A stretch of 64,000 nt of DNA from Antedon mediterranea (Eukaryota; Echinodermata; Crinoidea; Comatulida; Antedonidae): NCBI RefSeq assembly GCF_964355755.1, contig NC_092678.1:4126922-4190921 (forward strand). Reading direction: 5' to 3'. Of the stretch, positions 48,201 through 54,200 are shown in pieces. Under the pieces are notes generated by a model. The model worked only from the letters and a program-made list of their open reading frames with translations. It made no database searches and was not told the origin of the DNA. The first letter of the stretch is position 1, and every line of letters begins with the position of its first letter. The translations under genes were made by a program, and so were the position numbers.

Positions 48201-51200
48201 TATATGTTCGAAATAATGATACCATGATAGATATTATCTTACCTTCAGAGTGTATGATATCTTGGAACGTTCATTACACATTTTCAAGAGCTCTCTGATG
48301 GATCTGATATTCACGCCAGGATCTTCTGGTGTTCCCATCATTGTGTATGTTTTTCCTGCTCCTGTTTGACCATATGCCATGATGCAAATGTTATAGCCAT
48401 CTACACACGATGTTATGATTGGTAGAACCTCCGAAAATACCTAAGAAAGAATATTTTTGGTTGAATTATATAGTTGGCTATAATGGCTAAAACTATCTTC
48501 GAAACACCAAGGCATTCCCAATTATCTATCTAAAAACTAGATTTACTCCGTCACTATGACGAATTATAGGTTATATGCATTGATGTAAAAATAAATAAAA
48601 ATAATTGATTGATAAAGATATTTTGATTTTGTCACAATTTTTATTTATAATATATGAAAGATAGGATCTTGGTAGCGAAAATACAATAACTGGAATCACT
48701 GCACATCAAGCAACTGGACTAGATCAACCCGATCAAAGATCCCTCCGCATATATGTCATAAACCACCCTTGTTACATAATAGTAAAGACATAAGTTTCTC
48801 TAGATTTAATTATAAATCAGGTGTATAATTTATACACTAAGAAATAAAATTGAACAAACATTACAGATATTAAAAAGAAAATAAAGTCTTATTTTTCCTA
48901 GGTGAGACATGATATTCGTACTTTGAATGCTATAGACGCAATCACAGACCACCGAACCATGTACACAACTTAACAATATTTATCCACATTGTATGACCTA
49001 CTTGTAGTGAATATTTATCTTAGTTGGTTCCGAGCTTTCTCAGGCGTATATCCACTCGACGTACACTGCTGTCACTGAATGATAACTCATACAAAAAGTA
49101 TATTTAACTCAACTAGAACTTTTATTCCTTGTAATTCGATTAATACATCTTTCTACCACTACCAGTCAAGCCTTAATATTCTTTATCATCTTTCCGTTTA
49201 TCTACTCTGATCTTATTCTCTCTTCTTCTTAATATCTATTACATTCCACTTTTATACTGGACATGCAAATTTTAGGCTTCAGAGGAGGATAACATTTTCT
49301 CTCCAAAATTTATACGATTTTGATTGGCTAATAAAATAAGGCGGACCTGGTCTAAAGCATCCTTCTCTAAACACAGAGAATCACAACATCAATAATATGA
49401 CATTCCCCTTTTTGGGAAAAAGATTGTGTCAATTTAACATTTAAAACCATTTTACTTTAAACTATCTACTAATAACACCTCTATAATATTATTTATGCAC
49501 GGCTTAATCCATCTGCATTTCCATTTAATGATCCTTTCTTGTAAATAACTTTAAATTTATATCCTTGTAAAAACAGAGCCCATCTCATAAGTCTAACATT
49601 GGCACCCTTCATTGAGTCCGTCCATCTCAATGCCTGATGGTCAGTATGAACTTGAAATTCACAACCATACAGATAATACTTAAGTTTATTGATAGCCCAA
49701 ACAATAGAGAGGCACTCTTTTTCTGGCACAGAATATCTCTGCTCATGTACAGATAACTTTCTACTTAAGTACACAATGGGATAATCATTACCCTCACCAT
49801 CTATTTGGCTCAGCACTGCACCTATGCCATAATTTGAGGCATCGGTTTGCAATATAAACATCTTATCAAAATTTGGGGCTTTTAATACATTATCATCAGT
49901 AAGTCGTTTCTTTAAAGTTACAAAGGCATTTTCACATTGTTCATTCCACTTAACGGTATTACTTTTACTCTTTAAAGTTAAATCAATCAATGGCTTAGCA
50001 ATATCGGCATAGTTCTGTACAAATTTTCTGTAATAGCCAGTTAATCCGAGAAATGATCGGACTTGTTTCTTAGACAAAGGTCTGGGGAACTTTTCCACAG
50101 CCTCAACCTTATCAATCATGGGTCTAATTTCTCCATTACCAATCTTATGCCCCAGAAATTCTACCTGTGCATAGGCAATTTTACATTTCAAAGGCTTTGC
50201 TGTCAATCCAGCACTACTTAATCTTTCTAATACATTATTCAAATGAAAAATATGATCTTTCCAAGTTTGACTATAAATACATATGTCATCTATATATGCC
50301 TTAGCATATCCCTCAGTACCTTGTAATACCTTATCCATTAATCTTTGGAAAGTACTAGAGCTATTTTGCATACCAAATGGAAGTACATTGTAACAATACT
50401 GTCCAAATTGTGTAATAAATGCTGATTTGTCTTTGGTCTTAGGATCCAGAGGCACCTGGTAAAATCCTTTAGTTAGATCTAACGTAGTTATGTATATTGC
50501 GGATGATACCTCATCCAACATTTCGTCTATGCGAGGCATAACATAAGGGTCAAATTGTGTAGTCTTATTTAGTGATCTAAAATCTGTCACCATTCTAATT
50601 TGATTCTGGCCTTTCTTCAGGGCAATAATAGGTGCAGCATAGGCACTAACTGTAGGTTCTATTATACCCATAGCCAACATACTATCTAATTCTTCTTTCA
50701 ATTTACCCTTTAATGCTTGGGGCGTTCTATATGCCCTATGCCTTATAGGCATTTCACCATTAGTCTTAATTTCATGTGTCACTAAGTGAGTTCTACCTGG
50801 TACATCCGAGAATACATTCTGTTGGTACTTTAACAATTCTGTTAATTGTTTAGTTTGTGTATCATTTAAATTACTACTAACATTTACATCTCTCCATGTT
50901 TGTGATTGATGATAAGACAATCCTATGTCTATTTCATGACTATCTAACTCATTTTCATGGACTGTTTCATTTAAGTCTACTTCTTCTATCGACTGGACAT
51001 TTGTTACTACATAATAACCATCTTTACTTATTTCTACTTTATCATACCATCTCTTTAACATATTAACATGTAGAATTTGTTTTTCTTTTCTTCTACCTCC
51101 TATGTATATTTCATAATTTACATCATTGACCTTTTTTGTAACAGTGAAGGGGCCTTGCCATTTACTGTCTAACTTACTATTTCCTACTGGAAGGAATATC

Positions 51201-54200
51201 AACACTTTGTCCCCTTCTACAAATTCTCTATCAATAGCATTCTTGTTATAATTGTGGGACATAATTTCTTGTTGTTCAAGTTTGTTTACATTAGCATCTT
51301 TCATTAATTCCTCCATTTTTTCTCTTATGTCTAACATGTATTTGATAACATCAGTAGATGTTTCTTCATCTTCTACCCAATTACTTTTGAGTAAACTCAA
51401 GGGTCCCCTCACCTCTCTACCATAAAGCAATTTAAAAGGTGAATGGCCCGTCGCTTTACTAGGAACTTCTCTGTATGCAAACAGAAAGGGGGGTATGTAG
51501 TTATCCCAATTTTTTCTTTGCTTAACTGTAAGTGTCCTTATCATATTTTTCAATGTACCGTGAAATCTTTCAACAAGCCCATTGCTTTGGGGGTGGTACA
51601 CTGTAGTCTTTAATTGATTAATCCCCAACATACTACACATAGATTGCATAATTGAAGACATGAAATTAGTTCCTTGATCATGTACAATCTCTTCGGGTAA
51701 TCCTACTCTAGTAAAGACTTCTATTAGAGCCCTGGCTACTGTTTCAGCTCTAACATTGGGTAACGGGATAGCATCCGGATATCTCGTAGCATAGTCAATT
51801 ATAGTAAGCATATATTTGTTATTACGGCTTGTTCTAGATAAGGGTCCAACAATGTCTATCGCTATACGTTTAAATGGTGTACTTATAATCGGTAATGGTA
51901 TCAAAGTATGTTTCCTTTTACTTTTACCATTATCTACCTTTTGGCATTCCTTACAGACTTTACAATAGACTACCACATCTTTAAATATACCTGGCCAATA
52001 GAATTGGTTCAGGACCCTACTTTTAGTTTTCTCAACACCCATGTGACCTGCAAATGGCACATTATGACCTAAGTGTAATACACCCTGTCTACACTGAGTG
52101 GGTAATACAATCTGTTCCACTTGGTTATTCTTATCTTTAATACTACTCCAATTTCTCATCAATATACCTTGTCTCATAAAGAAACATACCCTATGCTGAC
52201 CTATTTCTTCTATAGGGACTACCCTGTCAAACACTCCTTTGAGTGAGTCATCATTAGTTTGCAATTTGATCAGTTCTTGTTTAGTTAGGTTCAGCTTGTG
52301 CTGTTGTTCATAAGTTTTACGTTTGACTGTTTTATCTTTAGCTTTATCCTCATTTTCGTCAAACAAATTATTCATTTCTGTTCCATTCATATCATCTAAA
52401 CACTTAGTTTTATTTACTTTGTTGTCATTTACTACTGTTTTCAACAATTGTACATTAGTTTCTTTAGGCGGCTCTTCTATCGGCTTAAAGTTACTATCTT
52501 TCCCTAACAATATCATTTCGTCTTGTATTCTAACATCATTTTCTATTCTGGCTTGCTCCCTAGTTAGGACGAACATTTCTTTAGCCATAGTTTCCCCACA
52601 ATTCTGGTCCAAATCATGACCCAATAACATGTCCCTCTGTAATCCTTCGATTACGGCTACAATCACTTTTCCTGTCACTATCTTACTTTCTATAGCTACC
52701 TCAGCTAAGGGGACGGTAATATCGCCTCCTATACCTCTTAACGTAACCCATTTTCCTGGCAAGTAACATTTGTTAGGCACTAGACTTTCCTTAACAGCTG
52801 ACTGGGTACATCCCGAGTCTCTAAGCATAGTTATATCCTGTCCTTCTAATTTTCCTGGTATTATACACTTCTCCATTTTATTTTCTACACTATCCATAAC
52901 TACTTGGGGTCTATCTGATTTTAGTCCTTCACATCTTAAGCCATCTTTCACATTCGGGCCCTTCTTAGTGTCACTAGTCTTTCCTTTTGCTACCATCTTA
53001 GGACAATCCCCTATTTTATGTCCCTTCTCCTTACAATTAAAGCATAGGCCATTAATCCATTCATTTGAAGGTTCTCTCTGTTGGAAATTTCTACCATAGT
53101 TATGGAATTTGCCTCCCCTTCCGCGATACCTATTGTATCCTTGCTGCCTAGCTCCAGGGTTATTCTGAGTCGTACCATTCTTAGGTTTACTATTTTCTTG
53201 GCCCTTATAATACGTAGGCTTATTTTCAGAATTTACGGCATTCCAATAGCCACGGCCACCTCTATTAGCTATATAATCATCGGCTATCATAGCCATATCA
53301 TAGCTCTTATTTACTTGTTTATCTCTAAGATAAAGCCTCAGATCTTCAGGCATTTTATTAAGTGCCTGTTCCATTATAATCATTTCAATAATGCCTGCAG
53401 CATCATCTTCTTTTACATTAGCACATTTCATCCAACATTTTAAATAATGGGAGAGCTCATTCAGCCATTCCCTGATGGACATATCTTTAACTCTGTTTGA
53501 ATTTCTAAATTTAAATCTGTAGGTCTCTGCGGACACATCATACTTTTCTAAGATTGCCTTCTTTAAGGTATCATAATCTACACATTCTTTTACGGTTAAG
53601 GATGCATATGCTGTCCTAGCTTTACCAGACAGTTCAGGTGCTAACCTAGCGGACCACGTATTCTTATCCCAACCTGTGGCTTCTGCCAAGTGTTCAAATG
53701 TTCTAAAATATATATCAATATCATCTGATTCCTTCAAAGTAGGAACCTTTACCTTCATTTCATCTACTATATTCCTAGCATTACTGTAGCTAGACCTATT
53801 TTCTAATTCCATCATTTTCACTCTTTCTTGTGATTCAATTTTTCTTTGCTCTATATCCATTTTCTTTTGCTCTATATCTGCTTCTAATCTTAATTGGTCT
53901 TGTTGGTATTGTAATTCTAACTTTTTGTTTTCGGCCTCGGCCTCGAACTTCATTCGAAAATATTCGAGCATCATATCTTTAGGCATACCGCCGGGTATTT
54001 CGGGCAAATCAATATCCCTAGCCATGTTATCATATATTTCATTGACTTGGTCAACCTCTTCTTGGTCAACCATATCTTCCCTAGTATCTTTGTCTGACAT
54101 AGTCTTATCTATATTTTTACCCGATCTTAAAGTTGTCATGCTAATAACAATTTTACTAATGAAATATGTAAACTTATGTATACAAAATATGTTATAAAAG

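What the first reader, a model, noticed from the sequence alone, without database searches (positions are those of the whole stretch)
49493..54139. Intact Gypsy element with integrase before reverse transcriptase (Gmr1 clade)
The single ORF runs Gag, CCHC, protease, integrase (HHCC, D-D-35-E, GPF), reverse transcriptase (YIDD), RNase H. This copia-like order with a Gypsy-type RT is the hallmark of Gmr1-like elements, a minority clade reported from deuterostomes. All domains are uninterrupted and Gag-Pol is fused with no frameshift, so this copy may be competent.
Basis: partly seen in the sequence, partly recalled or inferred. Interest (0 to 1): 0.75.

Follow-up and report, generated by a model that had tools for sequence, protein, structure and literature searches.

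The report
Intact Gmr1-type Gypsy LTR retrotransposon
This is a complete, recently inserted jumping element of the Gypsy family whose integrase is encoded before its reverse transcriptase; it is a well-preserved member of a clade already known from many animals, here lying in an intron of a kinesin gene of an invertebrate deuterostome.

Summary
The 1,548-codon ORF is on the minus strand (49493-54139) and runs Gag, CCHC, protease, integrase, reverse transcriptase, RNase H with no stop. The element is larger than stated: 49003-55086 (6,084 bp), with two 400-bp LTRs differing at one base, a 5-bp target duplication (CTACT), a tRNA-Leu primer site and a polypurine tract. The order is not an assembly artefact: dozens of near copies lie across the chromosomes, and six more divergent lineages in the same genome have integrase before reverse transcriptase, while fourteen ordinary Gypsy elements have it after. 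In RT, RT+RNase H and integrase trees the integrase-first elements form one clade, and their Gag carries the SCAN-type capsid domain that the literature ties to Gmr1. So 'Gmr1-like' is well supported, although no named Gmr1 sequence was available for a direct tree. The clade is no longer deuterostome-only: crustaceans, an annelid and several phyla have it. The host's Hox cluster marks it as an ambulacrarian (echinoderm or hemichordate). Competence is plausible but not shown. The element sits in sense orientation in an intron of a kinesin-14 gene. A new member of a known kind; interest is modest.

The parts
48998..49002 (.). target-site duplication, left copy (CTACT)
   Evidence: five other insertions of the family also show 5-bp duplications
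49003..49402 (-). 3' LTR (400 bp, TG...CA)
   Evidence: 99.75% identical to the other LTR
49403..49413 (-). polypurine tract AAAAAGGGGAA next to the 3' LTR
   Evidence: AAAAAGGGGAA precedes the 3' LTR of another copy (L005), with one change in L007
49493..54139 (-). single Gag-PR-IN-RT-RH ORF, 1548 codons plus stop
53261..53527 (-). Gag capsid C-terminal domain, SCAN type
   Evidence: Pfam PF02023, 34-37 bits, cut-off 27
53003..53044 (-). Gag CCHC zinc knuckle
   Evidence: motif; zf-CCHC 18.6 bits, below cut-off
52595..52861 (-). aspartyl protease, DSG
   Evidence: weak Pfam matches below cut-off, motif
51935..52102 (-). integrase zinc-binding domain
   Evidence: PF17921 E=6e-16
51590..51877 (-). 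integrase core match (rve); D-D-35-E completed just beyond it
   Evidence: PF00665 E=6e-10; D762, D821, E857
51050..51154 (-). integrase C-terminal GPF module
   Evidence: PF22938 E=2e-12
50141..50617 (-). reverse transcriptase (YIDD)
   Evidence: PF00078 E=6e-32; Ty3 RT E=2e-45
49559..49873 (-). RNase H
   Evidence: PF17917 E=1e-38
54140..54672 (-). 5' leader between primer site and start codon
   Evidence: direct reading
54673..54686 (-). primer-binding site TGGTGGCAGCGGTG, complementary to the 3' end of host tRNA-Leu
54687..55086 (-). 5' LTR (400 bp); TATAAAAG at LTR position ~147, AATAAA at ~277
55087..55091 (.). target-site duplication, right copy (CTACT)

Best explanation
A complete, recently inserted LTR retrotransposon of the Ty3/Gypsy superfamily, Gmr1-like clade. 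Inferred cycle: the 5' LTR promoter drives a full-length RNA; a single Gag-PR-IN-RT-RH polyprotein is made and cut by its protease; Gag (SCAN-type capsid domain and CCHC knuckle) packs the RNA; host tRNA-Leu primes first-strand synthesis and the polypurine tract second-strand synthesis; the D-D-35-E integrase with its GPF module inserts the cDNA, leaving a 5-bp duplication. The integrase module moved ahead of RT once, in the ancestor of this clade; it is a Gypsy integrase, not a Copia one. Shown: anatomy, order in many copies and lineages, common ancestry of the integrase-first elements in this genome, recency. Inferred: expression, processing, mobility.
For: Domains and order; LTRs, duplication, PBS, PPT; PBS matches a genomic tRNA-Leu(AAG); about 75 RT hits at 83% identity or more, eight with open frames of 1,531 aa or more; integrase upstream of RT in L054-L063 but downstream in L064-L077; integrase-first elements one clade in RT (92/93), RT+RH (100/99) and IN (99/97) trees; SCAN-type Gag in integrase-first families, not found in six ordinary Gypsy elements; pN/pS 0.18-0.30 in RT.
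Against: No named Gmr1 reference was in reach, so clade membership rests on structure, Gag type and trees with elements of the same genome plus Ty3. No expression or mobility data. The window copy has one private amino acid in RT (residue 1302) not seen in the compared copies, outside the catalytic motifs, effect unknown. The copies used for pN/pS were those best matching by protein, which biases the ratio downward.
Confidence: 0.93

Rival explanations
1. A separate, convergent integrase-first Gypsy lineage that is not Gmr1.
For: No Gmr1 reference sequence could be put in the tree (one search failed; other collections hold none that I found).
Against: SCAN-type Gag is the published hallmark of Gmr1-like elements (PMC4131045, PMC3424704) and is present here; one origin of the order in this genome.
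Confidence: 0.05
2. The domain order is an assembly or recombination artefact joining two elements.
For: None found.
Against: The same order recurs in dozens of near copies on different chromosomes and in six divergent lineages, several with intact ORFs.
Confidence: 0.005
3. A Copia-type element or a Gypsy/Copia chimera with a Copia integrase.
For: Copia-like domain order.
Against: RT best matches Ty3 (E=2e-45); the integrase matches Ty3 over its full length (E=5e-36), carries the H2C2 and GPF modules, and its tree agrees with the RT tree.
Confidence: 0.01
4. A structurally intact but inactive recent copy, dead through point changes or host silencing (compatible with the best explanation of what it is).
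For: One private RT residue; most copies in the genome have broken frames.
Against: Full open frame, LTRs 99.75% identical, motifs kept.
Confidence: 0.35

Closest known systems
Gmr1-like clade of Ty3/Gypsy (Gadus morhua Gmr1; Ciona; frogs; crustacean GyRex4/5; Lamellibrachia LGF3)
   Same: Integrase upstream of RT, Gypsy-type RT and IN, SCAN-type Gag; also known from marine animals (PMC8220671, PMC3587641, PMC4131045).
   Different: No structural departure found; host group differs and no direct sequence comparison with named members was possible.
Ty3 of yeast (solved RT and intasome, 4ol8, 7q5b)
   Same: Best solved relatives of both RT and IN.
   Different: Ty3 has RT before IN and a different Gag.
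SCAN domain proteins of vertebrates
   Same: Gag capsid domain is of the SCAN family; ZNF24 and PEG3 SCAN are the best, though weak, solved matches. SCAN is held to derive from a Gmr1-like Gag (PMC3424704).
   Different: Here it is part of a full retrotransposon Gag, not a transcription factor.

Membership tests
Gmr1-like Ty3/Gypsy | integrase encoded upstream of reverse transcriptase | tested here: met
Gmr1-like Ty3/Gypsy | RT and IN of Gypsy, not Copia, type | tested here: met
   Ty3 best in both; H2C2 and GPF modules
Gmr1-like Ty3/Gypsy | SCAN-type Gag domain | tested here: met
   PF02023 above cut-off; not found in the Gag stretches of six ordinary Gypsy elements (one stretch, L085, may not reach the whole Gag)
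Gmr1-like Ty3/Gypsy | integrase-first elements form one clade apart from ordinary Gypsy | tested here: met
   (RT 92/93, RT+RH 100/99, IN 99/97), within one genome plus Ty3
Gmr1-like Ty3/Gypsy | RT/IN tree groups it with named Gmr1 elements | not testable with these tools
   no named Gmr1 sequence found in any reachable collection
LTR retrotransposon, complete copy | two LTRs TG..CA, target duplication, PBS, PPT, intact ORF | tested here: met
active element | transcription and new insertions | not testable with these tools
   no RNA or population data

The most novel reading that the evidence does not exclude
In this one ambulacrarian genome the integrase-first clade has radiated into at least seven lineages, and one of them has spawned an amplified short derivative that keeps LTRs, primer site, Gag and protease but has lost RT and RNase H, so that it would have to be copied by its autonomous kin: a Gag-keeping parasite within Gmr1.
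Probability: 0.4. Interest if true: 0.4.

Novelty: new member of a known kind. Interest (0 to 1): 0.22.

Why it matters
It gives a clean, complete example of the Gmr1 order in an invertebrate deuterostome, with ordinary Gypsy elements of the same genome as internal controls; the matching RT and IN trees argue for a single move of a Gypsy integrase module rather than repeated captures. The SCAN-type Gag adds an invertebrate member to the group from which the vertebrate SCAN domain is thought to come.

Tried and rejected
Assembly artefact: rejected by independent copies. Copia or chimera: rejected by PDB matches and trees. Host by mitochondrial COX1: no match in the assembly; a Hox survey was used instead. 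The SCAN origin paper (PMC3209298) is not held. A search of plasmid records with the RT gave three weak matches (27-36% identity) and no named Gmr1. Crinoid and chromosome-number searches did not name the host.

Full report
Observation. The ORF 49493-54139 is on the minus strand and codes for 1,548 residues without a stop. Pfam places, in order, a SCAN-type capsid domain, zinc knuckle, protease (weak, DSG present), integrase zinc domain, integrase core, integrase C-terminal module, RT and RNase H. The integrase triad is D762, D821, E857 with 35 residues between the last two, GPF is at 996, YIDD at 1282.

Whole element. Exact direct repeats lie 5,684 bases apart. Base-by-base comparison gives LTRs at 49003-49402 and 54687-55086, 400 bp each, one mismatch at 49335, flanked by CTACT on both sides. 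The primer site TGGTGGCAGCGGTG follows the 5' LTR directly and the purine tract AAAAAGGGGAA precedes the 3' LTR. The primer site is complementary to the 3' end of a host tRNA-Leu, including the added CCA: the 20-mer ending CACCGCTGCCA occurs 223 times in the genome, and the one locus read is tRNA-Leu with anticodon AAG. The total length is 6,084 bp. One difference in 400 bp is 0.25% between LTRs; at an assumed 1e-9 to 1e-8 changes per site per year that is roughly 0.1 to 1.3 million years, and the rate is my assumption.

The family integrates in a regular way. Four solitary LTRs (L004, L006, L008, L009) and one further two-LTR copy (L003/L005) each show a perfect 5-bp duplication. About 75 RT matches at 83% identity or more are spread over the large chromosomes, eight with open frames of 1,531 aa or more (lower bounds). 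Among 29 close copies the RT gives pN/pS of 0.18 (all pairs) and 0.30 (window against the rest), compatible with purifying selection during past transposition, but the copies were picked by protein match, which lowers the ratio. The window copy carries one private residue (1302) in RT, about 20 residues after YIDD (13 copies were read).

Order test. In ten further loci at 38-59% RT identity (L054-L063, six lineages besides the window's) the integrase lies upstream of RT on the same strand. In twelve Gypsy elements found with another RT (L066-L077), and in two more picked up by the window's own RT (L064, L065), it lies downstream. Trees of RT (with Ty3 as outgroup), RT+RNase H, and IN each put all integrase-first elements in one clade (support 92/93, 100/99, 99/97), and the order needs one change on the RT tree. 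The best solved relatives of RT and IN are both Ty3. So one Gypsy-type pol had its integrase moved, once, and the order has been inherited since; the tree cannot say how the move happened.

Gag. The SCAN profile matches Gag of the window copy above its cut-off and reaches 89 bits in another integrase-first family. Gag stretches of six ordinary Gypsy elements give Retrotrans_gag, PNMA or nothing, never SCAN (the L085 stretch may not contain the whole Gag). Frog Gmr elements alone carried SCAN in one survey (PMC4131045), and the vertebrate SCAN domain is held to derive from a Gmr1-like Gag (PMC3424704). This is independent support for Gmr1 beyond the order.

Host. The genome is 354 Mb in 18 contigs, eleven of them large. 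A homeobox search gives a single cluster of twelve Hox genes on C2, 7.83-8.21 Mb, whose far end holds four posterior genes. I read them as Hox1 to Hox8, 9/10, 11/13a, b and c. Four posterior genes of this kind are the ambulacrarian set (PMC6307216), so the host is most likely an echinoderm or hemichordate. Gene names are my reading of homeodomains, not a tree. Which species is not shown.

Place in the genome. Kinesin motor exons lie on the same strand on both sides: 55615-55920 before the element, 48237-48440, 46525-46806 and 46258-46419 after it (open frames that contain the exons). The reading frame ...ESKQTE continues as VFSEVLPIITSCVDGYNICIMAYGQTGAGKTYTM, typical of a C-terminal (kinesin-14) motor (my reading). 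The element is thus in an intron in sense orientation; without it the intron would be about 1.2 kb. An effect on the host transcript is possible, not shown.

Side finding. Another integrase-first family (45% RT identity) has full copies and about 17 shorter SCAN-positive frames of 669-816 aa with no RT match. One was read whole as a locus (L099): LTRs of about 460 bp that are 99.8% identical, duplication AAAAC, a tRNA-Leu primer site, and an open Gag-protease frame that ends inside a truncated integrase. It looks like a non-autonomous derivative that spread with help in trans; only four such loci were read, and trans-mobilisation is inferred.

Verdict. Competence is open.

Noticed in passing
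L099 (G000:C3:8052200-8056600) positions 605 to about 4262; also L051, L052, L053: A short derivative of another integrase-first family (45% RT identity to the window): about 460-bp LTRs 99.8% identical, duplication AAAAC, tRNA-Leu primer site, an open Gag-protease frame that ends inside a truncated integrase, no RT. About 17 SCAN-positive frames of 669-816 aa without RT matches suggest an amplified non-autonomous family.
   Followed up: partly
46258-46806, 48237-48440, 55615-55920, minus strand: Exons of a kinesin-14-like motor gene; the retrotransposon lies in its intron in sense orientation.
   Followed up: partly
57000-59200, minus strand: Remains of a second, ordinary Gypsy element (RNase H, RT fragments, CCHC) with a 15-bp minisatellite at 58440-58591 inside its Gag frame.
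   Followed up: partly
42035-44846: Tandem array of a 71-bp unit, 39.6 copies at 99% identity, G+C about 49% against about 34% around it.
   Followed up: no
60966-61873: Tandem array of a 38-bp unit, 23.9 copies at 99% identity.
   Followed up: no
59384-60313, plus strand: Fragment of a probably non-LTR-type reverse transcriptase (CKKAFDNVPHERL).
   Followed up: no
G000:C3:11558907 to beyond 11588562: Dense tandem array of tRNA-Leu 3' ends, spaced about 170-190 bases or multiples; 223 genome-wide exact matches of the 20-mer, most of those listed in this array.
   Followed up: no
G000:C2:7827797-8206135: Single ordered cluster of twelve Hox genes with four posterior genes, the ambulacrarian set; one posterior gene is inverted.
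   Followed up: partly
plasmid records NZ_CP087956.1, NZ_CP065945.1, NZ_CP065944.1: Gypsy-like RT (27-36% identity) in records labelled Wolbachia and Bacillus plasmids; host DNA in the records seems likelier than bacterial Gypsy elements.
   Followed up: no
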